In this document: positions 16,201 through 37,772 of the stretch, piece by piece
Numbering within the stretch: position 1 is the first letter of the stretch
Layout: each line of letters opens with the position of its first letter
DNA from: Anaerolineae bacterium
GTDB lineage: Bacteria; Chloroflexota; Anaerolineae; B4-G1; SLSP01
Assembly: GCA_026991395.1 (NCBI GenBank)
Contig: JALXBP010000133.1
Location: 1 to 37,772 of the forward strand
Length of the DNA: 37,772 bases
Direction: 5' to 3'
Position numbers and translations under genes: made by a program
Notes under the pieces: model-generated
Database searches by the model: none
What the model was told of the DNA's origin: nothing
The model's input: the letters and a program-made list of their open reading frames with translations, nothing else

Positions 16201-18788
16201 CGGTCGGTGATGGTGGTGCCGGGGGCGATCTCGTCGGCGTCGAAGCGGTCGGCGATGGTCGTGTCGCCGTGCTGAGGGAGGATGCTCACGTCGCGGAGAC
16301 CGTTGCCGTCCTGGTCGCGTCCGGTGAGGAAGACAGTCTCCAGCCCGTTCGCCAGCAGCCACAGGTGATCGTCGAGGTTCGGGTTGTCGTCGCTGCGCGG
16401 GTCTTCGAAGGCGATGGCGACATCCATCCCGTGATCCTCGCGCACCTCCAGGCCGGTGAGGACCCATTCGTCGGGGTAGGTATGGACGGGCCGCTGCCGA
16501 TTCAGCACCCAGTTGGCGGCGTCATCGCACCAGGTGGCGGCCTCCTCCTCGCCCGTGCCGGGAGGGACGGGCTTGCAGGCGTCGGTGAGCATCATCACCA
16601 GCCAGACGACGCGCACCTGGTGGGCCACGCCCCAGCTATCCGAACGGGGCCAGTAGGCTATGCGGGCGGCGAAGGCTTCGCGCCCCCCGCCGGTCTCGTC
16701 GGCGACGATGTTCAGGGGGACGTAGACGAGGAGGGTGCCCTCGTCGTCCTTCTTGCGCACCGAGATGCCGTAGGCGTCCGTCCTCGCCTTGTCGAGCCAG
16801 TCGTCCACCTCGGCGTCCTTGTCCCGGATGGCGGGAGCGCCCGGCTTGACGGGCAGGTTGCCATAGCCGCCGTCGTAGGGGATGGTGATTTCGAGCATGG
16901 GGACCAGGCGCATATCGCCGTTCTCGTCGCCGGAAGAGGGCGTGTCGCCGTTGGCTGTGGCGACATCGGCGAAGGTGGCGTCGTTCCCCCTGCGGCGCTG
17001 AATCTGGCCCTCCTCGTCGCCGCTGGGCCAGTCCAGGACGTTCATCGCGTAGGTGAGGTGGGCGGCCTCGACGGGGCGGAGTTGCAGGTCCACCATGACG
17101 GGGTAGCCTGGTCGGAGGCCGTCCACCTGGAGTTCGAGGGCGCGGTCGGCGTCGAAAGGAGCGTCGGGGCTTCCCGCCTTCCCGGCGGGCGAAAGGTCCA
17201 CCCGGTCCGAGACGCCGTCGCCGTCGTCGTCCCGGTCGAAGAGATCGGGCGTGCTGTCGCCGTCGCTGTCCTTGTCGCAGGGCGTAGTGTAGGGCGGGGA
17301 ACCGGCGGGCGGGAAGGTGCTCCAGCACTCGTAGGTGTCCGCGATGCCGTCCCCGTTGCTGTCCGGATTGTTGGGGTCCGAGTACCAGCGCTGCCCGCTG
17401 CCGACGGGGTACTCGAACCCCCGGACCTCGGTGGCGTCCGAGATGGAGTCGCCGTCGGTGTCGGCGCTCTCCGGGTCGGTGCCCAGGATCATCTCTTGGG
17501 CGTAGGTGAGGCCGTCGTGGTCGGCGTCGCCGTCCGGGTCGGGAGCGGACGCACCTTCTAAAAGGAAGGAGGGGGAAGCGGCGAGAGGGAGGTCGGCGGG
17601 CGGCGTCGAGGGCCGCTCCTCGAGGGGATTGCGATGGGGGTCCCAGTCCGGTGCCCGGAGTGCCCGGAGCACATCGTCTTCCGCCTGGCTCTCCTCTTCG
17701 CGCCGTTCCTGCGCTTCCCGCTCGACCGCCAGGCGCTGCGAGAAGGCATAGACCTGCCGGCTCTGGAGCAGCGGCGCGACGACCATCGAGAAGAGGATCA
17801 CCAGCACGAGGAGGGCGTAGGTCCGCTTCGAGCGGCGGTGGGTGAGGAGCAGCCAGAGCAGGCCGACCATGCTCGCGGCCATGCTTCCCTGCCGGGCGGC
17901 CCGCTGCCGCTCGCGGGGTGAGCGCGGCAGGCCCGGCAAGCCCGTCAGCCGGGCGAGGGGGCTGCGGGCTTCGGGGAGCGGCCCGAAGTCCCAGAAGTCG
18001 GTCCGGATCTCCGCCTCGATCCGCTCGCCGCTGCGCTGCGGCGGATAGGCCAGATGGACGGTCAGGCGCAGGGGCAGGCCCCGCCCGTCGATCCAGACCT
18101 CGCCGTGGCCGGTGGCCCGGCGGAACTCGTCCGAGGCGGAGAGCGTGACCCCGGCGGGCAGTGCGCCTTCCTCCCGCAGGTAGTCCTCGAGCTGCCGCTG
18201 CAGGTAGTCGGCAAAGGCGGGGCCGTCCAGGTCGAAGCGGTAGCGGGTGAAGGTGATACCCCCGTCCCTGGCCTCTCCTCCCTCGGGGGAGGGGAGCGCG
18301 CGGGTCTCCGTGCCCGCCTCGCGCACGTTGGCCGCACCGGCCAGGTAGGCCATCAGGTCGCTGCCGGGGGCGAAGGCGTCGGTGAAGTCGTCGATCTCCT
18401 GCCAGGTCCCGCCGATGGGGCGACCGTAGGCGCTGTCGCCCTCGATGCGCACCTCGACGCCGTCCCGCCCGGTCAGGACGTTGCCGCCGTCCTTCCACAG
18501 GGTCAGGAGCAGCGTGCGGTCGGGCAGATCGGCCTGCCCTTCGAGGTGCAACGTCTCCCGGCGGCTGCTGTGGCCCACGTTGACCAGCGTCGGAGCGGGG
18601 TGGGTGGTCTGCACGATCTCGGTGGCGAAGTGGTAGGCCCCGCTCTCCTGAGCGCGTCGCCAGGCGTTTTGCACCGCTTGCGCCGGTAACGGCGTGGGTG
18701 CAGCCCGCGAGGAGGTGCCGAAAATCAGCATCAGCGAGAGGATGATGCCGAGGCATAGAGTCCCATACCTGTGCTGCTTCGTCTTCAT
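1233..18788 (-). CDS. Giant (5,851 aa) secreted multidomain surface protein: TSP3, LamG, PA14, LVIVD, Ig-like, P-domain
   Basis: The track starts at 18848, but ATG at 18788 is better: AGGGAG lies 5 nt upstream and a signal peptide begins there (MKTKQHRYGTLCLGIILSLM). Approximate residues: 30-290, LppX/LolA-like beta region; 320-340, a TM segment (YALLVLVILFSMVVAPLL); 418-530, thrombospondin-3 Ca-binding repeats (DTDGDSISD, DDDGDGVSD); 530-1140, an unassigned conserved-looking region; 1140-1330, a strongly hydrophobic region with several potential membrane helices; 1540-1660, a second TSP3 block; 1680-2760, four LamG-type domains; 2760-2900, PA14-like; 2900-3090, LamG; 3100-3480, Ig-like; 3490-4030, two LamG; 4170-4450, LVIVD beta-propeller repeats; 4480-4800, Ig-like; 4810-5020, CBM9/DOMON-like; 5050-5170, DUF11-like; 5370-5520, proprotein-convertase P-domain-like; 5660, VHLPMVAR; 5680-5800, CARDB-like. 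No catalytic domain is evident. A structural or adhesive cell-surface role is inferred. It follows the 72-aa gene and overlaps the 172-aa gene. Confidence 0.9.
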   Translation of the reverse strand: MKTKQHRYGTLCLGIILSLMLIFGTSSRAAPTPLPAQAVQNAWRRAQESGAYHFATEIVQTTHPAPTLVNVGHSSRRETLHLEGQADLPDRTLLLTLWKDGGNVLTGRDGVEVRIEGDSAYGRPIGGTWQEIDDFTDAFAPGSDLMAYLAGAANVREAGTETRALPSPEGGEARDGGITFTRYRFDLDGPAFADYLQRQLEDYLREEGALPAGVTLSASDEFRRATGHGEVWIDGRGLPLRLTVHLAYPPQRSGERIEAEIRTDFWDFGPLPEARSPLARLTGLPGLPRSPRERQRAARQGSMAASMVGLLWLLLTHRRSKRTYALLVLVILFSMVVAPLLQSRQVYAFSQRLAVEREAQERREEESQAEDDVLRALRAPDWDPHRNPLEERPSTPPADLPLAASPSFLLEGASAPDPDGDADHDGLTYAQEMILGTDPESADTDGDSISDATEVRGFEYPVGSGQRWYSDPNNPDSNGDGIADTYECWSTFPPAGSPPYTTPCDKDSDGDSTPDLFDRDDDGDGVSDRVDLSPAGKAGSPDAPFDADRALELQVDGLRPGYPVMVDLQLRPVEAAHLTYAMNVLDWPSGDEEGQIQRRRGNDATFADVATANGDTPSSGDENGDMRLVPMLEITIPYDGGYGNLPVKPGAPAIRDKDAEVDDWLDKARTDAYGISVRKKDDEGTLLVYVPLNIVADETGGGREAFAARIAYWPRSDSWGVAHQVRVVWLVMMLTDACKPVPPGTGEEEAATWCDDAANWVLNRQRPVHTYPDEWVLTGLEVREDHGMDVAIAFEDPRSDDNPNLDDHLWLLANGLETVFLTGRDQDGNGLRDVSILPQHGDTTIADRFDADEIAPGTTITDRWGIPVTATMQVENFSYPDRDHIATVMMTETVNVLHTYFTDGGQPLASAPTLLFAREERYRGVNLDDASLVTLDGDRLAVDAEPTGAPEMTMTFLSWAPFRYRDGRWESYPIDEYWDLLQVRLQEVFPVGDPADVQGVRVAAGQTALARSFYLAMFIGVTKMVRIGEQHVWDLDASEADLSLARETGRLAKEVGNGIGIVVSFLAEDYLLYLEDTLGELMDSGFQRLAADLKTPMGRMIALYAYLGEALQMTRHALRWSTIRATLGNITSKLSRMSKARIGGLAAGAILTVGVTVALAAQGKTAGRALGVVLSVVSVGMAIKDVVEHGRVFLQNVSRLAVGLEAIDTVGESSMKAGIIGLIVGAVVAVGAFITMWAASGVTIGSLAFNAMVAGTLATIVTAVVMFAISLIPVVGQIIAAVIAAIDAVILALCTAFGWEEGKVGRWFCKGISGLISEVVKWSIYSSNIMVDMEADDRLDIQEFRQNVLDPAKGIAAGNALAIQATVTTTIGLARLPFDWKAAIYAWQYNQRTLRSSTFRYAYQTEAWDIHESLSRRQVTDWTPADGKKVFIVRRVATDGSGVLLDEPGINRTVRLYLAEGYAIPAQECWSLGTPPICYVRTEKATNHIDLGRDLEYDIFPATLDDFYTPVPKDGGYSLAWGQDADVENTLGLPLVFPRQKDFDGDGLPNPADNGSDPNDSRWDDDGDGLSDRFELDVGSDPTLFDTDGDGLSDAEELRLETDPRRPDTDGDGLTDGEEVAGWEIVYGFAADGSALTTRVTSDPLDADADGDTLSDFLERAYGFNPRAYSNPNVLSLSSQVSEADAPRLLLRFEEPAGATVFADSSGYGNVGSCGSDGCPAAGVTGRYGHAVQFDGSGPQPVEANTAISGPGPFSVAAWVRTDHHGSLHILDQFSPDGHSGYAMEMQNDGRILWYTRGPEGYGFRVTSRRAVNDGTWHHLVGVREADGRGELYIDGVLDNSAQAPAQDLAAGVFEVGLYFVGTLDEVALFDHALSHAEVQRLRDGLYNPNDLIVRPGEQLDYRATVENNLPGRYAQGLLSTDFPGLLADDVPLTTFVLEPQGRATMAGNVQVSEEAPSARMDLTQVAGALVTDRQEQSNFAELWLRLDEAVSATTFLDDSGALPPRNGTCSASHCPARQQSGIFGYALRFDGGDKYVILPDAETLGLDDGSFTLSAWVKGDDFTGSRTVMGTDRRATNEGLFLGVRNGHPRMNFYNNALSSDTTLASGEWYHLVFRYDEATGEMAIFVNGELTAVETGHAPFRGKDTVHLGRAYGGNRFDGYIDDVRLFARPLSPQEIRALYLRPVFEMHFEEPPGATAFLDASGFGSVGGCTGACPGRATGMNGQAAHFDGRSYISVVPNDTLSLDDGLFTLALWLYPDSGSHDTGSDYAQGIFGRYEGYGKTDGSDPAHADPYAYPSLLRLGRKLRFGFGTGSGWVQRTSGDVLTLDAWNHVAVTFGPSYDSDGNFTGNVATLYVNGQRTDEWNLGNDRPAPNTFPYIFYIGRTTDQARIDIDSIEVTNENDGVGTAELCMTWNGSEIFNQGDIDDNHGDGRWYGVHVERTIYGDSTLRMWEDDGGERCGSAPDDGDDPLDGGGWLFDTNDTPQEYKDGTQWYTMTFSGDSEGSVWVDYRNPSIRFQGRIDELSLYKRTLTADEVLELYQTGATGLHLPLDDAPGTSSFDNVAGMGDGICAWNSTDGGSCPTAGVSGRINQAALFDGVDDNIQVNIDVSERAYALSLWFRTRCPDCGIFSAFSGTPGGGDYDDDRDIYLRNGDLCARLWSQERICSSGRNYADGEWHHLVHTFGGIAGGQRLYVDGTPVASGSKASSDFDRQTGVNIGYARDAGHDYFEGRIDDVRLFHRPLTDVEVQVLFHAAPRFQMHLDESTPACAFRSEYYANADLSGDPAFTGCDTWPLDHEWGTGGPVGGIGPDDFSARWSGDFYFDAGTYTFIARTDDGMRVRLDDGLIIDRWFDQTLHEYRATRTLSEGIHHLEVEYYDRTGDAVARFWWEPFFRDDSGHDNHGACGDSAACPAVGAQGRVGLAPRFDGVDDVITVPDDPALDVTTFSVGAWVMPTQLKSGRQVILAKENDNGGERNYSLMLLPDSTQVRFSFQAGNCSTWRAYDSVGELLLNQWNHLMMTYDGQQVNLYINGSLDRSVALTSTVCQSDAPLKIGREWNPFFTAFAGRIDEVMLYDYALSPRQVREVFLYQGKWVEDRQSHPVIVDADDPTPLLRSIRTDGPDYRAERDVVMHVEAIDPTSEVMQVGLGFRREGQSAFTWVSAPRCLDAPNGTAWCPTFTPSGEGRYTLRASAVDRVGHRQRSPQDYTLYVDGTPPALTLDAADGSRLDAVPHPAIEHAWMVRLSGTVSDPSLPGGYDGSGLAEGSLRVTLLTPDGTPAGLGTQAATVTGSTWSVAYLFTGGAPNGPYTVHAEAADRVGNRTGVDLATLYVDADAPAAHLDLAGIPTATLTGTVTLRGDVTDRAVPLLVSWTTDDAGDETGIEIRCLETTLYRVEQGTFASRTTYTWDGRGHQGAACRITLSDGGGDGGVTGTVQVCGTTVAAWDGNYGAGTAVSFVADAATCPDLSVAGLSRVEAAFESTLPGSPFCDEPAPAGELLHLPFEDAPDRNGNVTFRDISGEGNDGWCYGALCPTVGATGHEGSAARFDGLDDWVWIRKSAINRLTNDFTVMAWINPDRLTGVQRIIGTERWHSADGFGLFLDGAGLRFATFGVQDYEATDVGLTPGRWHHVAAVMGADNSVTFYVDGEARETIAGSAPANPDADDDLLIGRDLWGEEPFAGRIDEVRLFDRALSADEIEALYLGDGPLLRLPFESAWAADGARLEDVSGWEHHGTLHIGADDPAKQAVPGPVGAYALPFDGTDDYVGVAPDAGLDLSGGRFTQMAWVYPAPADDGAYPILGSGAYGEAPYAYPFLRVVNRTALQVGFGDGSSRETFTTGSILTEHAWHHVAVTFDGTTCRIYVDGVERAATDRFAGRTPYPTQRFDVGRDAVANTSCAVLTLQGIIPHPAWTPLYRVSVDGAAAYITPPWPAPNRELPIDRAITLCGPATLEVERAGWDPTTGRFVWSSLGTLALDTTLGTGSHTFADARTSATLRWDVTAAPDVLAYWQGRLDDVRIYPRALSEQEINALYQSRWRETTLVPAGGEVAEWSVTPPAGLEGSYRLDLRGRDAAGHVDNAVESRGVWRGEVDTLAPRLTMTRTIIGPYCRYTTVAQDFSLDAERFRTPCGVGVATERRHVRSPWYAALSGGTAETARPLDRLTAVCDLFPATLREVGALDTVGIAHAVAVSGTRAYVAAGERGLQVVDIADPGHPRPLGRFATTGRALDVAIVGSRAYLADETDGLVIVDVSDPAHPALLGGAETPEAHAVAVAGNYAYVADGGNGLIVLDLSTGFYAGIVPSLAPAYDVAVSGNYAYVVGDSAGLALVDVTDPASPAVVSSFDTPGDAVGVAISGTLACVADGPAGLRVIDVSNPLSPTEVGSYETPGYAEDVAIRGRYAYLADGLSGMPVIDIADPADPRFTDGLYTPGYARGVALSGGYACVAAWDYGLRVLSLSGVGGGTAACDPTGGEQATACDTAGNCTTVTLTATRQPLPATALPQAQSQPSLTVSILSVPPVLGSLAPVSVTGQAEAITSSLQALTVTVDAATLYTETWSGIVTGTYWSTDWAPSGEGEHRLRALITDREGNVATDTLTVTVDAQPPSVVITPTLLTTTHYHLPNTLDLSGRVTDTVGRPGVRVVVTGARRFEGSVDSASGPWVVPWYLGAGPLPDGETYTVTAQATDIAVHTAQATALVTVDVVPPAPVTLTLSSGGTPLAPGDTLRAVSPTLILTWTASSDGSGLADYLAEWTIRTTGTVTTTAAAYGPPVRQARYQARDGQKVSVQLTCRDVYGQQRAQRIGPVYVDGPATPDYVLLDDPDGLYDGWMESGCTRVGVDRRVSRNATGRAAMSAEQTFYVTWNEEALRLAWTGANWSTDGDLFIYLDIRAGGTITAFDPYSATMTDTRLYLPDATPLSPTVGMAADYLVWVRDSETALLLQWDGRAWAFERALSTSQYRFDPALRDGQTDLYLPFDLLGIADPASTPLNLVAFASEEDGLRLWAVMPNGNSVDSRRVIERPSDGAHEFALDHRYHWDGLGAGVCPNGSDGITAPYPDADLRLRLSVEPPGAVYHHLDDGLFDLWGLLPGERPNADVPPLGDGQVITYTLRYRNEGTDPATGVQVDLSAHDALRLTPGDDHRLVSLGDIAPGGEGTLVFRGVVDTGRSSAPRASVEARLYDDAHPSSGEPLEWIWADHRVDNESPRFLGIQEPTYRIAAGENRLIGYAYDDSGVPLVTVEVQGIGSFACPDETPEDGRWSCAWDTSSARDGQTLNLRLGATDTWGQESAWSAWQPFLVDARPPTVTFDVTATGIVSGSLLRAGTFALEGEVVDEGGVAGVELCADATCGPATLLTDAPAPPIVVREDVPPAPVAIDGTTTCGGGEIVRTFTVTESFPIGRVSVGFVAAHARRDDLRVTLESPTGASVRLLDDGIPGTDFRNADLFLDDAEPVGLGDLRGDQDPTAPYYERRARPREPLQAFRGETAAGTWTLRICDSNPSTDDGAYERSLLVLTPRSSAATSGRWTYRVIGDEPLDFVTETLALYGTDAVGNRTADPTTMLVIIDNVAPVITAMQVVSAVVYTPTLRVLEGTASDGGPTVYLRVDVRTPTGEFYSEPPERSGRTWRYDLHPPIAGRYLLWVTAADEAGNVTTAGPFEVELFPRPIVHLPMVAREHVPAPNLVVERIVATPDNVQVVIRNIGDRPVTDEFWVDLYLDPESAPTGVNQTWSLLGEQGVVWGVTADALPALTPGGRLTLTVGDAYYRAELSRIDRPLAEETQVWAQVDSANTATDYGAVQENHELLGGAYDNIRGPVDVVLHAAGVTSAALDGTTEHPAGDHLPPRPRGAPRGKEAR
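5430..6270 (-). repeat. LVIVD-type beta-propeller repeat block inside the giant protein
   Basis: At least six tandem units of about 45 residues carry the pattern A.DVA..G.YAYVAD...GL.V.DVSDP..P...G. Examples are GLQVVDIADPGHP, GLVIVDVSDPAHP and GLRVIDVSNPLSP. Such repeats normally fold into an extracellular beta-propeller. The repetition is visible at DNA level as recurrent tagGCGTAg-like strings on the plus strand. Confidence 0.85.
6700..13745 (-). repeat. Seven LamG/concanavalin-A-like modules (with embedded PA14 and Ig-like units) in the giant
   Basis: Each module opens with a LHL.F.E-type strand and D.SG..N.G, then C....CP..G..G, A..FDG.DD, FT..AWV, and W.H......G....YVDG. It closes with F.GRIDEV.LF.RALS..EI..LY. 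Closing signatures include YFVGTLDEVALF, YIDDVRLFARPLS, FQGRIDELSLY, FEGRIDDVRLF, FAGRIDEVMLY, FAGRIDEVRLF and WQGRLDDVRIY. Conserved Cys pairs near each N-terminus suggest disulphides outside the cell. A PA14-like unit (about 10,100-10,500) sits in front of the fifth module. Confidence 0.85.
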
Positions 18789-18793
18789 GGCCG

Positions 18794-18799
18794 CTCCCT
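18794..18799 (-). promoter_or_regulatory. Ribosome binding site deciding the giant's start
   Basis: AGGGAG on the minus strand lies 5 nt before the ATG at 18788-18786. The upstream ATG at 18848 used by the ORF track lies within the inverted repeat and would put 20 extra residues before the signal peptide. The 18788 start is preferred. Confidence 0.75.
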
Positions 18800-18843
18800 T
18801 TCCGTGAAACGATCCTTTGGGCCACGGCGGATAGCCGGTTTCG

Positions 18844-18883
18844 TCCATCGCGGCAGAGGGCGCGCCCGCTGCGCCGCGATGGA
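18844..18883 (-). promoter_or_regulatory. Inverted repeat in the leader between the 72-aa gene and the giant
   Basis: Perfect 11-bp arms TCCATCGCGGC (18844-18854) and GCCGCGATGGA (18873-18883) flank an 18-nt loop that itself contains GGGCGCGCCC. It begins 4 bp after the stop of the small gene and ends 55 bp before the giant's start. There is no T-run, so it is not a classical terminator. It could be an mRNA processing or stability element, or a partial terminator setting different expression of the two genes. Confidence 0.6.
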
Positions 18884-23037: not shown

Positions 23038-26000
23038 ATGCCCGTCGATCCACGAATTGCCGAGGTGGCCGCTGCGGTCGTGACCGCCCTCGTCCCTTAC
23101 CTGACCGAGGGGGGCAAGGCGGCGGCCCGGAAGGCCGGAGAAGCCTTGTTCGGTGCCATCAAGCGCCGGTTCAGCGGTCGGACAATCGCCGAGGCTGCTT
23201 TGGAGGAGTTCGAGGCCGACCCCGCCGACGAGGAAAACCGGCAGACCCTGGAAGCGCAGATCAGAAAAGCGCTGAAGCAGGATGCCGACTTCCTGGCCGA
23301 ACTGACCGAATTGCTGAAGGCGGCCCAGCCCCAAGTGACGGCGACAGGGCGCAGCGTCGGCGTGGGGAGAGATATGGATCACAGCGCCGCCATCACCGGC
23401 GACGGGAGCAGCGCGGCGATGGCCGACAGGGGCGGTACTGCCGTCAACGTCCAGAACGGCGACTTCGTTGGGCGGGACAAGATCGTCCTTGCCCCGTCGC
23501 CCACCCCTTCCCCCGCCGAGTTGCGCCGCGCCTACCTCAACCACATCTACGAGACGGTCGGCGCTCTCTCCCTGAGCGGCGTGGACCCCAAGGCGGCCAG
23601 CGAGGCCGAAACCCGCCTCAACCTGAGCGCGGTCTACACCGGTCTGTTCACCCGGACGCCGGAGGAGCAGGAGCGGGCCGAAAAGCCGGAAGCCCGCCTT
23701 CGAGGTGAGCAATCGCGGCGGCTTTCCGCCCTGGCCCACCTGGACCGGAGCCGCCGCCTGGTGCTGTTAGGCGACCCCGGCTCCGGCAAATCCACCTTCG
23801 TCAACTTCGTCGCCCTCTGCCTGGCGGGGGAGGCCTTGGGCAAGGAGGAGGCCAACCTGAAACGCCTTACCGCGCCGCTGCCCGTCGAGGACGAGGACGA
23901 GGAACCGAAGCCCCAGCCTTGGTCCCACGGTCCACTGCTGCCGGTGCGGGTGGTGCTGCGCGACTTCGCCGCCCGCGGCCTGCCCCCGGCCGGGGAGGAG
24001 GCCACCGCCAAGCACCTGTGGGCCTTCATCGCCGCCGGACTGGAGGGCCACGGTCTGGACGAGTACACCCCCCACCTGAAGCGCGAGTTACAGGAGCAAG
24101 GCGGCCTGCTCTTGCTGGACGGGCTGGACGAGGTGCCGGAGGCCGATCAGCGCCGCGAGCAGATCAAGCAGGCGGTGGAGGACTTCGCCGCCCTCTTCCC
24201 CCGCTGCCGCATCCTGGTCACCAGCCGCACCTACGCCTACCAGCGGCAGGACTGGCGGCTGCGCGGGTTCGAGGTGGCGGTGCTGGCCCCCTTCAGCAAC
24301 GGGCAGATTCGCCGCTTCGTGGATCGCTGGTACGCCCACATCGGCCAACTGCGCGGCCTCGATCCCGATGATGCGCAGGGGCGGGCGGAACGGCTCAAGC
24401 GGGCCATCTTCGACAGGGAGCGGCTGCACCGTCTGGCAGAACAGCCCCTGCTGCTGACCCTGATGGCCTCCCTCCACGCCTGGCGCGGCGGTGATCTGCC
24501 GGAGCGGCGGGAGGAACTGTACAACGACGCGGTGGACCTGCTGCTGGACTGGTGGGAGGGCCACAAGGTGCTGCGGGACGCGCGGGGCCAGGTGGTGATG
24601 CAGCAGCCCAGCCTGGCCGAGTTTCTGCGGGTGGGCCGAGAAAAGGTGCGGGAACTGTTGAACAGTCTGGCCTACGAGGCCCACAAGGCCCAGCCCGACC
24701 TGGTGGGGACGGCCGATGTGCCGGAGGGGAAATTGCTGAGCGGGCTGATGCACCTGAGCCGGAATCCGGAGGTCAACCCGGCTTTGCTGACCAGGTACCT
24801 GAGCCAGCGGGCCGGGCTGCTCCTGCCGCGCGGTGTGGGGGTCTACACCTTCCCGCACCGCACCTTTCAGGAGTACCTGGCCGCCTGTTACCTGACCGAC
24901 CACGACTACCCCGAGGCGGTGGCCGAGTTGGCGCGGCAGGAGCCGAACCGCTGGCGGGAGGTGGCGTTGTTGGCGGGGGCCAAGGCGGCGAGGGGCACCT
25001 CCTCCGCTATCTGGTCGCTGGTGGAGGCCCTCTGCTACCGGGACGCGGGGGAAAAGGAGACCCTGCCCGCAGAGGACGCCTGGGGCGCGCTTCTGGCGGG
25101 GCAGGCATTGGTGGAAAGCGCGAACCTGGAGCGGGTCAGCGAGCGCAACCGGCCCAAGCTGGAGCGGGTGCGGCATCATCTGGCCTGGCACGTCCTGCGG
25201 GCCGACGGGCTGGAAGGCCGCCCCTACTTGCCGCCGATCGAGCGTGCCGCCGCCGGCCGCACCCTGGCCCGCCTGGGCGACCCCCGCTTCCGTCCCGACG
25301 CCTGGTACTTGCCCGCCGACGACCTGCTGGGCTTCGTGCGCATCCCCGCCGGGCCGTTCCTGATGGGCAGCAGCGACGATGACGAGATGGCCTATGGCGA
25401 CGAGAAGCCCCAGCATCCGGTGACCTTGCCGGAGTACTACATCGCCCGCTACCCGGTGACCAATGCCCAGTACCGGGCCTTTGTCGAGGCGGGGGGATAT
25501 GAAAACCGCGCCTACTGGACCGAGGCGGGGTGGAGGTGGAAGGAGAAGAAGCAGGTAACCGGGCCGCGGGATTACGGCGAACCATTCAACCCGGCCAACC
25601 ACCCGGTGGTGGGGGTTACGTGGTACGAGGCGGTGGCGTACTGCGAATGGCTGACGGAGAGGCTGCGCGAGTGGGAGGGGACGCCGGATGAACTGCGCAG
25701 GCGGCTGGTCGGGGCGGATGGCCGTCCGCCCTGGCGCATTACGCTGCCCTCGGAGGCGGAGTGGGAGAAGGCGGCGCGGGGGGAAGATGGGTGGCGTTAC
25801 CCTTGGGGGAACGATCCGGACCCCAACTGTGCCAACTACGACGAGAGCGGCATCGGTACGACCAGCGCGGTGGGCTGCTTCCCCGGCGGGAAAAGCCCCT
25901 ACGAGGTGGGGGAGATGAGCGGGAACGTGTGGGAATGGTGCCGCACCAAGTGGGAGGGTGATTACCGGGATTACCGGGGCGATGACGCTCTGGAGGGCAA

Positions 26001-26133
26001 TGCCCCCCGGGTGCTGCGCGGCGGGTCGTTCGACGACGATCAGAGGTTCGTCCGCTGTGCCTATCGCAACTGGAACTACCCGTACCTCCTCCTCAGGAGC
26101 GTCGGGTTCCGCCTGGCGGTGGTGTCCCGTTAG
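23038..26133 (+). CDS. NACHT NTPase fused to a C-terminal FGE-sulfatase (C-type-lectin-like) domain
   Basis: 1,031 aa with a strong ribosome-binding site. Residues 1-105: a helical N-terminal domain (TALVPYLTEGGKAAARKAGE). Residues ~105-155: Gly-rich text with VNVQNGDFVGRDKI, a motif type common before NACHT and WD40 modules in multicellular-type bacteria. NACHT: P-loop GDPGSGKST (~245) and Walker B LLLLDGLDEVPE (~357), then a helical region with FPHRTFQEYLAA near 605-625. FGE fold from ~762: IPAGPFLMGS, YPVTNAQYRAFV, HPVVGVTWYEAVAYCEWL, LPSEAEWEKAARG, SGNVWEW, RVLRGGSF and GFRLAVV at the end. NACHT proteins are STAND switches, several of them antiphage in bacteria. The FGE fold here is probably a ligand-binding scaffold, not an enzyme. 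Its last ~30 residues have the layout of a DGR variable region. Confidence 0.92.
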   Translation: MPVDPRIAEVAAAVVTALVPYLTEGGKAAARKAGEALFGAIKRRFSGRTIAEAALEEFEADPADEENRQTLEAQIRKALKQDADFLAELTELLKAAQPQVTATGRSVGVGRDMDHSAAITGDGSSAAMADRGGTAVNVQNGDFVGRDKIVLAPSPTPSPAELRRAYLNHIYETVGALSLSGVDPKAASEAETRLNLSAVYTGLFTRTPEEQERAEKPEARLRGEQSRRLSALAHLDRSRRLVLLGDPGSGKSTFVNFVALCLAGEALGKEEANLKRLTAPLPVEDEDEEPKPQPWSHGPLLPVRVVLRDFAARGLPPAGEEATAKHLWAFIAAGLEGHGLDEYTPHLKRELQEQGGLLLLDGLDEVPEADQRREQIKQAVEDFAALFPRCRILVTSRTYAYQRQDWRLRGFEVAVLAPFSNGQIRRFVDRWYAHIGQLRGLDPDDAQGRAERLKRAIFDRERLHRLAEQPLLLTLMASLHAWRGGDLPERREELYNDAVDLLLDWWEGHKVLRDARGQVVMQQPSLAEFLRVGREKVRELLNSLAYEAHKAQPDLVGTADVPEGKLLSGLMHLSRNPEVNPALLTRYLSQRAGLLLPRGVGVYTFPHRTFQEYLAACYLTDHDYPEAVAELARQEPNRWREVALLAGAKAARGTSSAIWSLVEALCYRDAGEKETLPAEDAWGALLAGQALVESANLERVSERNRPKLERVRHHLAWHVLRADGLEGRPYLPPIERAAAGRTLARLGDPRFRPDAWYLPADDLLGFVRIPAGPFLMGSSDDDEMAYGDEKPQHPVTLPEYYIARYPVTNAQYRAFVEAGGYENRAYWTEAGWRWKEKKQVTGPRDYGEPFNPANHPVVGVTWYEAVAYCEWLTERLREWEGTPDELRRRLVGADGRPPWRITLPSEAEWEKAARGEDGWRYPWGNDPDPNCANYDESGIGTTSAVGCFPGGKSPYEVGEMSGNVWEWCRTKWEGDYRDYRGDDALEGNAPRVLRGGSFDDDQRFVRCAYRNWNYPYLLLRSVGFRLAVVSR
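26032..26103 (+). other. Candidate DGR variable region (VR) at the 3' end of the NACHT-FGE gene
   Basis: The 24 codons between the conserved RGGSF and GFRLAVV were aligned without gaps to 561-632. Seventeen codons differ and seven are identical (ttc, gtc, cgc, tgt, tat, cgc, ccg). In 13 of the 17 differing codons the third base is unchanged. Many variable codons end in C (gac, aac, tac, ctc, agc, gtc), as expected if the template codons were AAC and adenines were mutated. Position and fold match known FGE/CLec DGR targets. No template repeat or reverse transcriptase was seen in the window. Confidence 0.55.
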
Positions 26134-33241: not shown

Positions 33242-33270
33242 TTGACAACCTTATGAAGGCGGGCTATATT
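33242..33270 (+). promoter_or_regulatory. Strong promoter reading into the cassette array (Pc-like)
   Basis: A perfect TTGACA (33242-33247), 17 nt, then TATATT (33265-33270, 5 of 6 matches). The first cassette gene starts 188 nt downstream, and no other plus-strand gene lies between. The stretch 33,271-33,431 holds no gene or RNA I can recognise. The function resembles the cassette promoter of integrons, though here it lies beside a chromosomal regulator and not inside an intI gene. Confidence 0.65.
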
Positions 33271-33431
33271 TTACTTGGGGCGTGGTGCAAGGCAGGAATT
33301 TTCCCTTGTCGAGGGCCATACGTGGCGAGGGGGTGGCCTGAATGCAGCGGACAGGTCGTCTGTGGGGCTGAAGAGGGGGAAGGCAGTAGTTGTGCTGTGT
33401 GATGGTGGATCAGATTTGCCTCTAATTATAA

Positions 33432-33438
33432 GTTAGGC
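33432..33438 (+). other. Left cassette boundary GTTAGGC (attI-like or solo R' core)
   Basis: GTTAGGC matches the R' consensus GTTRRRY and precedes the first cassette gene by 20 nt. The context ATTATAAGTTAGGC resembles the end of a classical attI site, where a short A-rich stretch comes before GTTAGGC. No convincing R'' partner or long inverted repeat is seen upstream, so it is either attI-like or a remnant. Confidence 0.5.
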
Positions 33439-33457
33439 GAGCAAGAGGAATGCAAAA

Positions 33458-34357
33458 GTGACCGTATACGAGCTTTACCACGATGAATCTATGGAAAATG
33501 GATACTGGCATGGCATCTTACTGGTTCCGGCGGAGAAAAAGCCATTATTGCTTGAATACCTTGGGAAAGCGCGCCATAATACTGGTTATCGTGACCCCTT
33601 GGGCATAAAGAAGGTGAAGAGAAATAACCGAGTTTTTGATTGTGCTTCATCATGGGTGCAACTTGGGCTGGGTTTCATGCGCTCTCGTGCTAAAACGCAG
33701 CCATTTTCCGTGTCACTTGGAAAACAAGGGAGGCAACGAATTCTTATCAACTTGCCGCAAGGCGCAATAGGAACTAAATTTATATTGTTTCGGGAACGTG
33801 ATAACCATAAAGCAATGACAGGCTACCCTGATAGGGCGAGTAAGATTGAGACAACATTCCGTTTTGGAATTAAAGGTGGTTTGCACTTCTTGGGGTCGGA
33901 CGAGCAACCTATTCACATTGAGAAAATGCACTTTGATGGTCACAAGCATCATCTCAGGCATTTGGACCGCAATCGCATTGTAGGACGATTGCAGGGGTTA
34001 CGAAGATATTGTAGTATCTCGTCACGACCGGATATTATTGATGATAGATCGTCGGATCACAGGGCAGAAGACGCGCAAAGTTATGAGGATTGTCAGTTGT
34101 TGCAATTGACGGACCTGTTGATAGGGAGTTTCAGGACTGCATTAGGGGTTGTAACTAGAGATATTCACAAAGAGTTGGCTCGACTACCTAAAGAATTAAT
34201 CTTAGACTACCAAAAGGGCTATGCCAGGATGAGAAACAGTAGGTGGTTCAGTTCCTTTTGGTTGAGTGAGTGTTTCCTTCAAAGCGATGGATGGCACTTC
34301 CAAACCTTGGAATTTGTTGAGGGCGATACAGATGTGAAACAATTATCTTTGCTGTAA
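33458..34357 (+). CDS. DUF3800-family protein (cassette 1)
   Basis: 299 aa from GTG 33458, with AGAGGA 9 nt upstream; the ATG at 33450 is out of frame and stops at once. The N-terminus MTVYELYHDESMENG carries the D-E-S motif and the C-terminal region has QLLQLTDLLIGSF. Both are hallmarks of DUF3800, an RNase-H-like fold found in many mobile and defence-associated loci. The invariant acidic residues of the family appear to be present. The gene is AT-rich (codons such as gat, aaa, ttt) compared with genes left of 33,200, which points to recent transfer. It lies between a GTTAGGC core and an attC site, so it is a complete integron-type cassette. Its molecular activity is unproven; a nuclease-like role is inference from the fold. 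Confidence 0.82.
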   Translation: MTVYELYHDESMENGYWHGILLVPAEKKPLLLEYLGKARHNTGYRDPLGIKKVKRNNRVFDCASSWVQLGLGFMRSRAKTQPFSVSLGKQGRQRILINLPQGAIGTKFILFRERDNHKAMTGYPDRASKIETTFRFGIKGGLHFLGSDEQPIHIEKMHFDGHKHHLRHLDRNRIVGRLQGLRRYCSISSRPDIIDDRSSDHRAEDAQSYEDCQLLQLTDLLIGSFRTALGVVTRDIHKELARLPKELILDYQKGYARMRNSRWFSSFWLSECFLQSDGWHFQTLEFVEGDTDVKQLSLL

Positions 34358-34362
34358 TACTT

Positions 34363-34489
34363 GCCTAACCACGGCTTCGCCTGACCCGCCTCCAGCGGCG
34401 GGTAAGCGACACGAAATTTGCCCGCTGTGATTCTAGTCGAAGTTTCTCAGATTGCCCGTTCCGGCGGGCAGGAGAGCCCAGCGTTAAGT
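34363..34489 (+). other. attC recombination site 1 (127 bp)
   Basis: It starts 5 bp after the DUF3800 stop with R'' GCCTAAC (34363-34369) and ends with R' GTTAAGT (34483-34489). The arms form an imperfect inverted repeat: the left side reads ...GGCTTCGCCTGACCCGCC and the reverse complement of the right side ...GGGCTCTCCTGCCCGCC. Length is in the range of VCR-type attC sites. Confidence 0.8.
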
Positions 34490-34523
34490 ATTTGGAAAAT
34501 TTCCTTCCGCAGGAGGTCGACTT

Positions 34524-34952
34524 ATGAGTGATGTTAAGGTGTATATCTCAGGAGCATTGACCAATGCTCCGAACCTAAAAGAACTACGTTCTTTCTATGA
34601 AGATATTGGTGCACTTTGTCGCGAACTTGCTATGGAACCTTATCTGCCTCACAAGTTTTCAGACCCGGAGCTCAACCCTGATCTTTCTCCAAGGCAGGTT
34701 TATGAGCAGGACAAGAAGCGTGTCCTCAGCTCAGATCTGGTGATTGCCTATGTAGGGGTCCCTTCGCTTGGTGTCGGGATGGAAATAGCCTATGCTGATG
34801 AGCACGACATTCCAGTGATTTTGGTTTACCCTGAAGGCGCCCGTGTATCAAGATTGGTGAGGGGTCTTCCCTCACGTATACTGATAGACGAAGTGCGATT
34901 TACCTCTAAGGAAGAAGCGCTATCACAGATCAGGAAAATTCTTACCGGGTAG
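34524..34952 (+). CDS. Nucleoside 2-deoxyribosyltransferase-like protein (cassette 2, gene 1)
   Basis: 142 aa with AGGAGG 8 nt upstream. Rossmann-like fold of the nucleoside 2-deoxyribosyltransferase superfamily: VYISGALTNA at the N-terminus, then SPRQVYEQDKKRVLSSDLVIAYV, and SLGVGMEIAYADEHDIPVIL. The Glu in GVGMEIAYA corresponds to the usual catalytic glutamate. The family transfers or hydrolyses N-glycosidic bonds of deoxynucleosides or nucleotides, and related domains occur as effectors in some retron-type defence systems. It shares a cassette with a dCTP-deaminase/dUTPase-like gene, so a joint action on nucleotide pools is inferred. After the stop, 34,953-35,154 has no clear gene; a 24-codon open stretch (LKSGIEEEDAERVIECC) from 34,958 may be a remnant. 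Confidence 0.8.
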   Translation: MSDVKVYISGALTNAPNLKELRSFYEDIGALCRELAMEPYLPHKFSDPELNPDLSPRQVYEQDKKRVLSSDLVIAYVGVPSLGVGMEIAYADEHDIPVILVYPEGARVSRLVRGLPSRILIDEVRFTSKEEALSQIRKILTG

Positions 34953-35154
34953 TTTATTTGAAGAGTGGAATTGAAGAAGAAGATGCGGAGCGTGTGATAG
35001 AGTGTTGTGCTGGCTTCATCAACAGGGTGTAATTCCCTAGCGAGTTTATGTTGGAGTATGAAAAACAGGTGATTTGATGTGATCCTCAGTACCAGTTTAT
35101 ATCGAGTATCAGGGGTAATCGTTATCTATGCGTTTTAAAAGAGGAGCATAGACT

Positions 35155-35904
35155 ATGCAAGAGGAAAACTACCCTTCGATTCTTATAGACACCCAGATAG
35201 TGCAAGCGGTTCGTGATGGAGAGTTACAAATAGTGGATCCTGATGGCCGCCCATTAATTGATGCTGGTACCGGAACAAGATCTGCAGATTCAGGATTAGA
35301 TGCGCATGGTTATGTGCTACATCTCAGGAATCTATATAGCTGGCGTGAAGGGAAGTGGATTTCTTTAAAAGGTGGGCGCTCATATGTCTTGCGCCCGGAC
35401 GAGTTTATTATCGCAGAGACATATGAAAAGCTTTCTTTGATGCGAAATGTTTGTGCTACTATTCATGCCCTAGCTCGTTTAACTTTGCAGGGGATTTCCC
35501 ATATTTCTACAACAGTCCATCCTGGTTGGGGGGCGTCTTCCCCTGAAGTTTTGCGGATAGGAGTTCGGAACATGGCACCTTGGCCTATAACTCTGCGAGA
35601 TAAACAACGAATTGCTCGTATGCTTCTCTGTAGAAGTTCTATCCCTGCTCAATTGGTTTCTGCTCCGACGGCGAAGGATATTTTTCAGTATATGGACACA
35701 ATTATTGGGGAGTATCAACGTATACGCAATAGGCAGAGTAAAGCTGTAAAAGTTTTGCTTCTGCTTGTAGGTACGTTCTTTGTAATTGTAGTTGCCTCCT
35801 TGCTCCCTGGTAATCAATCCCCGATTTTTGATTGGCTCAAAGCGTTAGGGGCGGCGCTTATTGGATTATGGGCAGCGTATATGTTTAGGATGATGGGATT
35901 GTGA
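35155..35904 (+). CDS. dCTP deaminase/dUTPase-fold protein with C-terminal membrane helices (cassette 2, gene 2)
   Basis: 249 aa with GAGGAG 8 nt upstream. Residues ~5-165 follow the Dcd/dUTPase trimer fold: ILIDTQIVQAV, SGLDAHGYVLHLRNLY, YVLRPDEFIIAETYEKLSL, ARLTLQGISHISTTVHPGW, RIGVRNMAPWPITLRDKQRIARMLL. The Asp before PGW in Dcd is His here, and the catalytic Glu of the VLEF strand is not obvious. Either the chemistry differs or the domain only binds nucleotide. Residues ~200-245 contain two hydrophobic segments (KVLLLLVGTFFVIVVASLLPG and ALGAALIGLWAAYMF), unusual for the family, suggesting membrane anchoring. Free dCTP deaminases are known antiphage proteins that deplete dCTP. Together with the neighbouring deoxyribosyltransferase-like gene this is a candidate two-gene nucleotide-targeting defence unit. 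Confidence 0.78.
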   Translation: MQEENYPSILIDTQIVQAVRDGELQIVDPDGRPLIDAGTGTRSADSGLDAHGYVLHLRNLYSWREGKWISLKGGRSYVLRPDEFIIAETYEKLSLMRNVCATIHALARLTLQGISHISTTVHPGWGASSPEVLRIGVRNMAPWPITLRDKQRIARMLLCRSSIPAQLVSAPTAKDIFQYMDTIIGEYQRIRNRQSKAVKVLLLLVGTFFVIVVASLLPGNQSPIFDWLKALGAALIGLWAAYMFRMMGL

Positions 35905-35909
35905 TAAGT

Positions 35910-36029
35910 GTCTAACCTAGCGTACATCGGACACGGCTTCGCGGTGGGGCAACGTTGGCGGTTTTGAGGCGATATAGCGTCGCCCCTCTTGGGTAAACTC
36001 GCCGCTGCCGTTAACATCTTTCGTTGGGC
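35910..36029 (+). other. attC recombination site 2 (120 bp)
   Basis: R'' GTCTAAC (35910-35916) starts 5 bp after the preceding stop and R' GTTGGGC (36023-36029) ends it; both fit RYYYAAC and GTTRRRY. The right half has TTAAC then CGTT, the spacing of classical attC sites. The arms are only partly complementary, as usual for attC. The preceding segment 34,490-35,909 holds two genes, so this is a two-gene cassette. Confidence 0.75.
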
Positions 36030-36054
36030 TAATTAACCAAGGGAGAGCGTAGAA

Positions 36055-37002
36055 ATGAACGGCGAAGTGGCTCAGATAGTTGCCCTAGTAGCGCACGGGA
36101 ATCTATTTCTGAGTGGCAAGGATGTTGACCTTTCCACAAATTCCACACTTCAGTACATTTCCTCGATCAGGTTCGTTCGCTATGAAAGCAGGCAGAACAC
36201 ACAAGGCGTGGAAGTAGCCAGCAGTGTTTCCGAGTGGTTTGCTTTTTTGCGCTCGGCAAAAGCAACTCGTTTGTGGCATGTTGATTTTTACCACCAAAGG
36301 CAGGATATTCCGACACATATCGCCAGTGCTTTTTCGGGGGGTGTTTCAGCAGCCATTCAAGTCGATTTGCCCGAGGGTTTTGAACTATGGTTTCCAAAAT
36401 GGAAAACAACGGGACTTATCAATGCCGGAAGAAAAAGTGTAAAACAGGAGAGAGAACATCACCACAAGGCAACTTTGCAAAAGCTATCGTTACTTCTGTG
36501 CAGGGTTTTTCGATGCCGCGGGTCCCGCAACCACGCCTCCCCTGCAGTATCGAAAAGCAAGGGGGAGGCAGACTTTGAAGACAGATCCAAGCCCTGGTCT
36601 GTAGAATATCGTGGTTTTATGTCTCCAGATTCTTGTGCTTTACCCATGCAAGAGATGCGTGCGGTCAAGGAGAGGCTCAGGGAGGCCGTCTCGCGGGCTA
36701 AAGAGTTCGCGCAAGGAACGCACTGGACGAAAGATTTTACGAGGTCGTTGGAAGCATTAGAATCTCCTGCGCCTGTATTCCCCTTCCCGGATATGCTTCC
36801 TTCTTCCGGTTTTCCTTTGGAAGCGCGTCAATTGCTGGCTGCGGCTGCACAGGCCTATGTCTTTGGCGGTATGGGTTCCTGGAATGATCTGAGCTTGCCA
36901 AATGATCCGGACATCATCGAGGAATACGAAGAAATTAGCACGGAGCTTTACGAAGCCATCCAATTTGCTATCCTAATGGCGTCCAATGCCTTTGCGGCTT
37001 GA
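36055..37002 (+). CDS. Unknown 315-aa cassette protein
   Basis: ATG 36055 with GGGAG 9 nt upstream, directly behind attC site 2. I do not recognise the family. The N-terminal ~130 residues look like a globular alpha/beta domain (WFAFLRSAKATRLWHVDFYH). The C-terminal ~110 residues contain EARQLLAAAAQAYVFGGMGS and YEEISTELYEAIQFAI, a helical domain with a conserved-looking GGMGSWND motif. Between them, residues ~145-180 are basic, contain Cys (LLLCRVFRCRGSRNHAS) and coincide with a GC-rich inverted repeat (36535-36569) that is out of keeping with the flanking sequence. This may be a small insertion or local frameshift. No signal peptide or membrane segment is seen. Confidence 0.75.
   Translation: MNGEVAQIVALVAHGNLFLSGKDVDLSTNSTLQYISSIRFVRYESRQNTQGVEVASSVSEWFAFLRSAKATRLWHVDFYHQRQDIPTHIASAFSGGVSAAIQVDLPEGFELWFPKWKTTGLINAGRKSVKQEREHHHKATLQKLSLLLCRVFRCRGSRNHASPAVSKSKGEADFEDRSKPWSVEYRGFMSPDSCALPMQEMRAVKERLREAVSRAKEFAQGTHWTKDFTRSLEALESPAPVFPFPDMLPSSGFPLEARQLLAAAAQAYVFGGMGSWNDLSLPNDPDIIEEYEEISTELYEAIQFAILMASNAFAA
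36535..36569. repeat. GC-rich inverted repeat inside the 315-aa gene
   Basis: GCCTCCCCTGC (36535-36545) pairs with GCAAGGGGGAGGC (36557-36569) with small bulges across an 11-nt loop. It is GC-rich in an AT-rich gene and lies at the junction of the two apparent domains, so it may mark an inserted element. Confidence 0.5.
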
Positions 37003-37014
37003 GCGTTCGAATCA

Positions 37015-37118
37015 GCCCAGCACCGGTCGCAGCGGACAGCAGCTTCGCCAATCGCGAGAGCGGGCGCGAGAGGGACAGAGTGATTGTGCGGTCGCTGCTG
37101 CTGAGCTACACGTTGGAG
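37015..37118 (+). other. Degenerate attC-like site 3 (104 bp)
   Basis: Follows the 315-aa gene by 12 bp. The possible R'' is GCCCAGC and the possible R' GTTGGAG; each has one mismatch to consensus. Inner arms GGTCGCAGCGGACAGCAGC and GTCGCTGCTGCTG are partly complementary. Position between two cassette genes supports it, but the boxes alone would not. Confidence 0.45.
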
Positions 37119-37168
37119 TAGAAGGAAAATGATCTTTGTAGACCATAGAGAGTAGGAGGGATGAGCGC

Positions 37169-37408
37169 ATGGAGAGGATCTGTCCCGGATGTAGAGGCAA
37201 AGGAGTCATCGAATGTCCTGTGTGTGGTGGGAGTGGCGTTGTTGTGAAGCGGCGGGGTGTGGTGGGGGAGATAGGGTTGAGGTCATTAAGGGAAGAGTGT
37301 CACACCTGTCAAGGAACGGGCAAGTTGCTGTGCGAGATGTGCGGGGGTGTGGGGAAGATCTTGGTGAGGGAGTTGGATTCGAGGAAGCGGAAGAGAGGGG
37401 GATTCTGA
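37169..37408 (+). CDS. 79-aa DnaJ-type zinc-finger protein (CxxCxGxG repeats), cassette
   Basis: ATG 37169 with GGAGGG 8 nt upstream. Four cysteine knuckles are arranged as in the DnaJ central domain: CPGCRGKG, CPVCGGSG, CHTCQGTG and CEMCGGVG. They are expected to bind two zinc ions. There is no J-domain or substrate-binding domain, so this is a free-standing zinc-finger module. A basic tail (RKRKRGGF) ends it. Such small proteins may act in protein folding, redox or RNA binding; the specific role is unknown. It is flanked by a degenerate attC-like site and by a good one at 37,495, making it a cassette of its own. The stretch 37,409-37,494 shows no gene. Confidence 0.8.
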   Translation: MERICPGCRGKGVIECPVCGGSGVVVKRRGVVGEIGLRSLREECHTCQGTGKLLCEMCGGVGKILVRELDSRKRKRGGF

Positions 37409-37494
37409 ATCGAGACCAAAGGGTGGGTTGAGGAAGAGTTGAGAGTTGAGCTGCACCAGGGGCGCAGAGAATGCGTGAGGGAAATGCGCATCTC

Positions 37495-37620
37495 GCCTAA
37501 CGGTTCACTTGAGCGGACTGGGCTATCGTGTGGGTTGCAAGGAGGATTGGGGCCGCTATTGGAACTCTGAGCATGGGGGAACCCGGGACCGATCCGCCAC
37601 TCAGCTTGATGTCGTTCGGT
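37495..37620 (+). other. attC recombination site 4 (126 bp)
   Basis: R'' GCCTAAC (37495-37501) and a probable R' GTTCGGT (37614-37620, one mismatch in GTTRRRY). The left arm ...TTGAGCGGACTGGGCTATCG resembles the reverse complement of the right arm ...AAGCTGAGTGGCGGATCGG. Length nearly equals attC site 1 (127 bp). Confidence 0.65.
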
Positions 37621-37657
37621 GGCTGTCTATGAGAGGATGCTGAAGGATAACCCAATT

Positions 37658-37772
37658 ATGTCCAACGTACAGGCGTTCTATGACCAGAACCCGGAGGCAG
37701 AATGGACGCGCCTTGATCGTCACAGAACTGAGTTTGCGGTAACTTTGCGGGCGTTGAGGGAGTTTCTGCCCA
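37658..37772 (+). CDS. SAM-dependent methyltransferase, N-terminus only (cut by window edge)
   Basis: It is open at the right edge and so absent from the track. The in-frame ATG at 37658 is preferred (MSNVQAFYDQNPEAEW), with AAGGA about 11 nt upstream; ATG 37637 is an alternative. The sequence continues through RLDRHRTEFAVTLRALREFLP. From memory, class I methyltransferases often begin V..FYD.NPE.EW.RL..H..E...TLR.L..FLP before the SAM-binding GGG motif, which would lie just beyond the window. It follows attC site 4 directly, so it probably is the next cassette gene. Confidence 0.7.
   Translation, partial: MSNVQAFYDQNPEAEWTRLDRHRTEFAVTLRALREFLP

What the first reader, a model, noticed from the sequence alone, without database searches (positions are those of the whole stretch)
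34524..35904. Two-gene cassette: deoxyribosyltransferase-like plus membrane-anchored dCTP-deaminase/dUTPase-like protein
Both products are predicted to act on deoxynucleotides, no attC site is visible between them, and the second has unusual C-terminal membrane helices and altered active-site residues. Nucleotide-depleting enzymes are established antiphage tools, and cassette arrays often carry defence genes. The combination looks undescribed to me.
Basis: inference. Interest (0 to 1): 0.72.

Follow-up and report, generated by a model that had tools for sequence, protein, structure and literature searches.

The report
Nucleotide hydrolase beside membrane-anchored dead deaminase
A small mobile gene cassette in an uncultured bacterium carries a probably active enzyme that cuts DNA building blocks, next to a membrane-anchored relative of dCTP deaminase whose catalytic residues are all replaced; the pairing looks unrecorded, but nothing found shows that the two genes work together or defend against viruses.

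Summary
The two genes are real and sit between two attC-like sites (34363-34489, 35910-36029), with no attC-like pair between them. Gene A (34524-34952) is a nucleoside-deoxyribosyltransferase-fold protein. It aligns best with the 5'-nucleotide N-hydrolases DNPH1/MilB and keeps the catalytic Tyr/Asp/Glu and both phosphate-binding serines, so it is predicted to be an active deoxynucleotide N-glycosidase rather than a nucleoside transferase. Gene B (35155-35904) has a confidently predicted dCTP-deaminase/dUTPase fold and a C-terminal two-helix membrane hairpin. The catalytic positions (Ser, Arg, Asp, Glu138-equivalent) are replaced, so it is most likely a non-catalytic, membrane-tethered relative. 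There is no defence-library match. Known antiphage dC deaminases use the unrelated zinc fold. A's closest relative (60% identical, Planctomycetota) stands alone in a housekeeping neighbourhood. No conserved A-B pair turned up in roughly 900 genomes or in the plasmid, phage and viral collections. Function of the pair remains inferred: A acts on a (modified) dNMP; B is a membrane nucleotide-binding or scaffold protein, or simply an unrelated passenger. New variant of known folds; modest interest.

The parts
34363..34489 (+). attC-like site upstream of the pair (cores GCCTAAC ... GTTAAGT), 5 nt after the stop of the preceding gene
   Evidence: RNA-parameter fold pairs the two ends, DNA fold of the bottom strand not better than shuffles
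34511..34516 (+). Shine-Dalgarno-like AGGAGG for gene A
   Evidence: sequence
34524..34952 (+). gene A, 142 aa, DNPH1/MilB-like nucleotide N-hydrolase (nucleoside deoxyribosyltransferase fold); predicted catalytic Y7, D63, E87, base-contact H43, phosphate-binding S81 and S109
   Evidence: residue roles from PMC10603095
34953..35154 (.). spacer of 202 bp, 40% G+C, no attC-like core pair, no terminator-like site
35140..35146 (+). Shine-Dalgarno-like AGAGGAG for gene B
   Evidence: sequence
35155..35904 (+). gene B, 249 aa, membrane-anchored DCD/dUTPase-fold protein lacking the catalytic residues
35155..35640 (+). B residues 1-162: DCD/dUTPase-like domain (predicted cytoplasmic)
   Evidence: AF2 pLDDT mostly above 90 over residues 50-160; Foldseek to DCD/dUTPase structures
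35671..35802 (+). B residues 173-216: long helix, charged first half then membrane-spanning second half
35821..35892 (+). B residues 223-246: second, weaker membrane helix
35910..36029 (+). attC-like site downstream of the pair (cores GTCTAAC ... GTTGGGC), 5 nt after the stop of B

Best explanation
The segment is a two-gene integron-type cassette. Gene A most likely makes an active dimeric N-glycosidase of the DNPH1/MilB kind. It removes the base from a deoxynucleoside 5'-monophosphate (possibly a modified or damaged one) through a covalent Glu87 intermediate, with Asp63 as acid/base. Gene B makes a dCTP-deaminase-fold protein that no longer has the residues for deamination or dUTP hydrolysis. 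A charged helix and a two-helix hairpin hold it to the inner face of the membrane. The most likely role of B is non-catalytic: an oligomeric, membrane-bound nucleotide-binding or scaffold protein that may place or regulate A. Shown by computation: folds, A's conserved active site, B's replaced catalytic residues, membrane helices, attC-like borders. Inferred: A's substrate, B's ligand and oligomer, and any co-operation of A and B.
For: A: PF05014 over cut-off; best solved relatives are MilB CMP hydrolase and DNPH1 by sequence and by fold (DNPH1 and MilB at ranks 1-3, TM 0.77-0.85). It keeps Tyr (Y7 = DNPH1 Y24, not the MilB Phe of the ribose-specific enzyme), D63 = D80, E87 = E104, S81 = S98, S109 = S128' and H43 = H56 (residue roles PMC10603095). 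B: PF22769 E 9.5e-11; AF2 pLDDT above 90 over the core; Foldseek to M. tuberculosis, E. coli and M. jannaschii DCDs at E 1e-10 to 1e-8. Of 36 columns near-invariant in 16 viral Dcds it keeps 17, mostly Pro/Gly/Asn/Leu structural ones. It has A107 and R108 for Ser-Ser, L111 for Arg, H122 for Asp, G136 for the catalytic Glu and R155 for Gln. The host has its own canonical DCD-family gene elsewhere (111 bits). Borders.
Against: No homologue of B closer than housekeeping Dcds was found, so conservation of its unusual features cannot be tested. Nothing shows that A and B act together: A's nearest relative lacks B, a 202-bp spacer separates them, and B has its own ribosome-binding site. With S111/R115-type phosphate contacts gone as well, B may not bind nucleotides at all.
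Confidence: 0.45

Rival explanations
1. The two genes are unrelated passengers: two former single-gene cassettes, or a gene and a captured fragment, that now share one attC. A works alone as a nucleotide-pool hydrolase; B is a separate membrane protein or a decaying one.
For: A's 60% identical relative in a Planctomycetota MAG has no B and lies between aspS, a glycosidase, an FHA protein and asnS. That genome has no DCD-family match at all. Chloroflexota relatives of A occur without a B-like gene in the 1.5 kb on either side. The 202-bp spacer is long for a cassette operon (general knowledge).
Against: No attC remnant in the spacer even with one mismatch per core. Both products belong to deoxynucleotide-handling folds, which would be a coincidence. 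B's reading frame, Shine-Dalgarno and fold are intact.
Confidence: 0.35
2. Antiphage or stress effector pair: the degenerate DCD domain of B senses a nucleotide made or removed by A and opens or disturbs the membrane through its two-helix hairpin, in the manner of two-helix effectors of nucleotide-signalling defence systems.
For: Architecture (nucleotide-binding fold, long helix, two membrane helices); cassette setting; nucleotide-acting partner. A distant relative of A is carried by P1-like IncY phage-plasmids.
Against: No PADLOC match for any of the four cassette genes. No conserved pair or defence neighbourhood found. A's relatives mostly stand alone. B's phosphate-binding residues are changed.
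Confidence: 0.13
3. One reading: both proteins are active enzymes that deplete deoxynucleotides to stop phage.
For: Family-level matches of both.
Against: B lacks the catalytic Glu, Ser, Arg and Asp. Known antiphage dC deaminases such as AvcD are deoxycytidylate deaminases (PMC10511110), a different fold from the zinc-independent trimeric DCDs (PMC12088426). No conserved pair.
Confidence: 0.04
4. B is an active nucleotide hydrolase with a rebuilt active site.
For: The fold is intact and some polar or aromatic residues (R108, H122, W125, R155) fall at positions of the canonical active-site motifs (alignment).
Against: None of the catalytic positions of DCD or dUTPase is kept; no relatives show a new conserved set.
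Confidence: 0.03

Closest known systems
DNPH1 (Rcl), 2'-deoxynucleoside 5'-phosphate N-hydrolase, and bacterial MilB CMP/hmCMP hydrolase
   Same: A: fold (TM 0.77-0.85), catalytic Tyr/Asp/Glu, SLGVGxE motif, phosphate-binding serines, base-side His as in DNPH1 (PMC10603095)
   Different: About 20% overall identity to both. DNPH1's Glu55 position is Pro42 in A. A belongs to a distinct 'YISGALT...YLPH...' group rather than the 'YFSGSISGGR' group common in Chloroflexota. No activity shown.
dCTP deaminase and bifunctional dCTP deaminase-dUTPase (DCD, DCD-DUT; E. coli Dcd, M. tuberculosis DCD-DUT)
   Same: B: fold of the first 162 residues (E 1e-10), structural Pro/Gly/Asn/Leu positions, PF22769
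   Different: Catalytic Ser, Arg, Asp and Glu replaced; a four-residue insertion before the catalytic strand; a C-terminal membrane hairpin instead of the soluble C-terminal tail
AvcID and other antiphage dC deaminases
   Same: Nominal link to dCTP metabolism only
   Different: AvcD is a deoxycytidylate deaminase with an RNA antitoxin (PMC10511110); unrelated to B by fold; no similar RNA or partner looked for here
SLATT-type two-helix effectors of nucleotide-signalling conflict systems (recalled lead)
   Same: Two adjacent membrane helices linked to a nucleotide-related cytosolic domain
   Different: No SLATT family match for B in Pfam; membership not claimed

Membership tests
DNPH1/MilB 5'-nucleotide N-hydrolases (A) | Nucleoside deoxyribosyltransferase fold | tested here: met
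   PF05014 E 7.8e-7; AF2 pLDDT 87.7 and Foldseek to DNPH1/MilB
DNPH1/MilB 5'-nucleotide N-hydrolases (A) | Catalytic triad Tyr24/Asp80/Glu104 (DNPH1 numbering) | tested here: met
   Y7, D63, E87 (PMC10603095)
DNPH1/MilB 5'-nucleotide N-hydrolases (A) | Phosphate-binding Ser98 and Ser128' of the helical extension | tested here: met
   S81 in PSLGVGME and S109 in VSRLVRG
DNPH1/MilB 5'-nucleotide N-hydrolases (A) | Base release from a 5'-monophosphate | not testable with these tools
   needs enzyme assay
dCTP deaminase / DCD-DUT (B) | DCD/dUTPase fold | tested here: met
   PF22769 over cut-off; Foldseek E 1e-10
dCTP deaminase / DCD-DUT (B) | TIGR02274 dCTP deaminase equivalog cut-off | tested here: not met
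   35.9 of 92.8 bits
dCTP deaminase / DCD-DUT (B) | Catalytic Glu (E. coli Glu138) and Ser-Ser / Arg / Asp motif residues | tested here: not met
   G136, A107-R108, L111, H122; E138A E. coli enzyme has been solved with dCTP bound (1xs4 title)
dCTP deaminase / DCD-DUT (B) | Homotrimer | not testable with these tools
   only a monomer was predicted
Integron gene cassette | attC sites with RYYYAAC and GTTRRRY cores bounding the unit | tested here: met
   34363-34489 and 35910-36029, only two such pairs in the window; 0.005 comparable hairpin pairs per shuffle of the segment
Integron gene cassette | Imperfect single-strand hairpin of attC | tested here: inconclusive
   RNA-parameter fold pairs the ends on the + strand, but DNA fold z -1.3 and 0.3
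Integron gene cassette | Nearby integron integrase (intI) | tested here: not met
   Best TIGR02249 match 84.7 bits against a cut-off of 265 in the whole assembly; contig ends at 37772, so the array may continue or be a cluster lacking an integrase
Antiphage defence system | Match to a known defence family, or conserved pair in defence islands | tested here: not met
   PADLOC none above chance; no conserved pair found
Antiphage defence system | Phage protection on expression | not testable with these tools
   needs plaque assay

The most novel reading that the evidence does not exclude
A previously undescribed two-gene mobile system in which a membrane-tethered pseudo-dCTP-deaminase senses a deoxynucleotide and acts through its two-helix hairpin, while a DNPH1-like hydrolase makes or removes the signal.
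Probability: 0.1. Interest if true: 0.7.

Novelty: new variant of a known kind. Interest (0 to 1): 0.35.

Why it matters
DCD/dUTPase-fold proteins are known as soluble enzymes. A catalytically dead member fixed to the membrane would be a new use of the fold, and its pairing with a DNPH1-like hydrolase would be a simple testable link between nucleotide-pool cleaning and membrane signalling. If the genes turn out to be independent passengers, the case is just one more example of unusual enzyme cargo in environmental cassettes.

Tried and rejected
Searched for B relatives: class and phylum of the host (298 and 400 genomes, overlapping), 246 Planctomycetota, plasmids and phages by tblastn, viral contigs and genome contigs. 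All empty or only housekeeping Dcds; apparent longer hits L013 (protein kinase) and L014 (membrane segment only) were rejected as chance. Degenerate-pattern scans for B and A in viral contigs gave nothing. A profile comparison of B against an alignment containing itself is circular and not used. Considered and rejected: A as an NDT-type transferase (it carries the DNPH1 phosphate serines); B as the host's only Dcd (a canonical one exists); an attC between the genes; a promoter or terminator between them (no site above chance). Literature searches found no description of a membrane-anchored DCD, though only open-licence papers were searched.

Full report
Setting. The window is the whole of contig C133 of a 2.46 Mb, 153-contig assembly. 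Up to about 33248 it is 70% G+C; from 33249 to the contig end it is 49%. This low-G+C segment holds short genes on one strand: 33458-34357, A (34524-34952), B (35155-35904), 36055-37002 and more beyond. In the entire window only two pairs of integron-type core sites (RYYYAAC ... GTTRRRY, 50-160 bp) occur, at 34363-34489 and 35910-36029. Each begins 5-6 nt after a stop codon. Shuffles of the segment give 0.5 core pairs on average but only 0.005 with a comparable hairpin. The DNA fold of the bottom strands is not better than shuffles, so I call them attC-like. No integrase over the integron cut-off is in the assembly. A simple pattern found further attC-like candidates on contigs C45 and C81, but the reversed control pattern gave as many hits.

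The pair is one unit. Between A and B (34953-35154) there is no core pair, even allowing one mismatch in each core, and no terminator-like site. A and B each have a Shine-Dalgarno-like stretch. It does not prove co-operation: the spacer is 202 bp.

Gene A. Pfam gives Nuc_deoxyrib_tr (E 7.8e-7, over cut-off). By sequence the nearest solved proteins are the nucleotide hydrolases MilB and DNPH1/Rcl. The AF2 model (pLDDT 87.7, two-row alignment) matches DNPH1 and MilB best. In DNPH1 the catalytic residues are Y24, D80 and E104, S98 and S128' bind the phosphate, and H56 touches the base; MilB, which uses ribonucleotides, has Phe for Y24 and Glu for H56 (PMC10603095). A has Y7, D63, E87, S81, S109 and H43 at these places. 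The prediction is therefore an active, deoxy-preferring 5'-monophosphate N-glycosidase. DNPH1's Glu55 is not kept (Pro42).

Relatives of A. A degenerate search of 85,462 genomes found one clear close relative, 60% identical over 136 residues, in a Planctomycetota MAG (L080:4995-5441). It lies among genes that read as aspS, a C45-type peptidase, a glycosidase, an FHA-domain gene, a MEMO-like gene and asnS, with no DCD-like neighbour; that genome has no PF22769 match. More distant members occur in Chloroflexota fused to a C-terminal sigma-factor-like helix-turn-helix region (L085-L090), and in P1-like IncY plasmids next to a YaaC-family gene. In none was a B-like gene adjacent. Neighbourhoods searched were about 1.5 kb on each side, 4-5 kb for L080 and L046.

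Gene B. Pfam gives DCD (E 9.5e-11), while the equivalog model for true dCTP deaminase is far from met. With 16 viral Dcds fetched for the purpose, AF2 gives pLDDT above 90 over most of residues 50-160 and a C-terminal helical hairpin, 173-216 and 223-246. Foldseek matches DCD/dUTPase structures at 1e-10. Of 36 columns near-invariant in those Dcds B keeps 17, whereas single Dcds left out keep 70-100%. The losses are the catalytic ones: Ser-Ser to Ala107-Arg108, Arg to Leu111, Ala-Gly to Ser118-Thr119, Asp to His122, catalytic Glu to Gly136, Gln to Arg155. That Glu138 is the key residue of E. coli Dcd is established knowledge; structures of E138A with dCTP or dTTP bound exist (entry titles), so loss of this Glu alone would not stop binding. 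In B the phosphate-side Ser and Arg are gone too, so even binding is uncertain. Hydropathy supports one strong and one weaker membrane helix. The charged stretch RIRNRQSK before the first suggests a cytoplasmic DCD domain with a hairpin insertion (inference). The host also has a canonical DCD-family gene elsewhere (C61, 111 bits), so B is not its housekeeping enzyme.

No family for B. Sensitive searches of roughly 650 Chloroflexota and 246 Planctomycetota genomes, tblastn against all held plasmids and phages, and exact-peptide scans of viral and genome contigs found nothing closer than ordinary Dcds. The scans of contig collections only reach close relatives, so B may have distant kin that were missed.

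Defence reading. None of the four cassette genes matches PADLOC (one chance-level hit at E 0.05). Antiphage depletion by dC deamination is known for AvcD, a deoxycytidylate deaminase (PMC10511110); DCDs are zinc-independent homotrimers of a different architecture (PMC12088426). With B's catalytic residues replaced and no conserved pair, nucleotide depletion by B is unlikely. A sensor/effector reading (degenerate nucleotide-binding fold plus two-helix hairpin, with A controlling the ligand) is not excluded but has only architecture in its favour.

Verdict. The combination appears unrecorded in what I could search. The functional interpretation is only partly supported; the co-operation of A and B and any antiphage role are inference.

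Noticed in passing
window 23038-26133, 174-668; L125 (G000:C52:6458-6582): Three FGE-sulfatase C-termini (one on a 1031-aa NACHT + FGE protein) share RGGSF....VRCAYR.......GFRL.V with hypervariable residues between, like diversity-generating retroelement variable regions. No reverse transcriptase (PF00078) was found in the assembly and the differences are not biased to A.
   Followed up: partly
L085-L090 (six Chloroflexota genomes): A-like hydrolase domain fused to a C-terminal region resembling sigma-70 region 4 helix-turn-helix: a possible nucleotide-linked regulator.
   Followed up: no
L100:1075-3229: An A-like domain between two helix-turn-helix-like regions in one 431-aa protein, followed at once by an ORF with an AHEIGHLL motif resembling ImmA/IrrE peptidases.
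   Followed up: no
L046:2961-4510: P1-like IncY E. coli plasmid: a distant A-like gene overlaps a YaaC-family gene, an apparent two-gene unit in a phage-plasmid.
   Followed up: no
window 33249-37772: Sharp fall in G+C (70% to 49%) marks the start of the cassette-like segment; genes 33458-34357 and 36055-37002 match no family above cut-off.
   Followed up: partly
window 1233-18848 (-): A single 5871-aa reading frame with many repeated LamG-like and Ig-like stretches, apparently a giant surface protein (reading of the translation).
   Followed up: no
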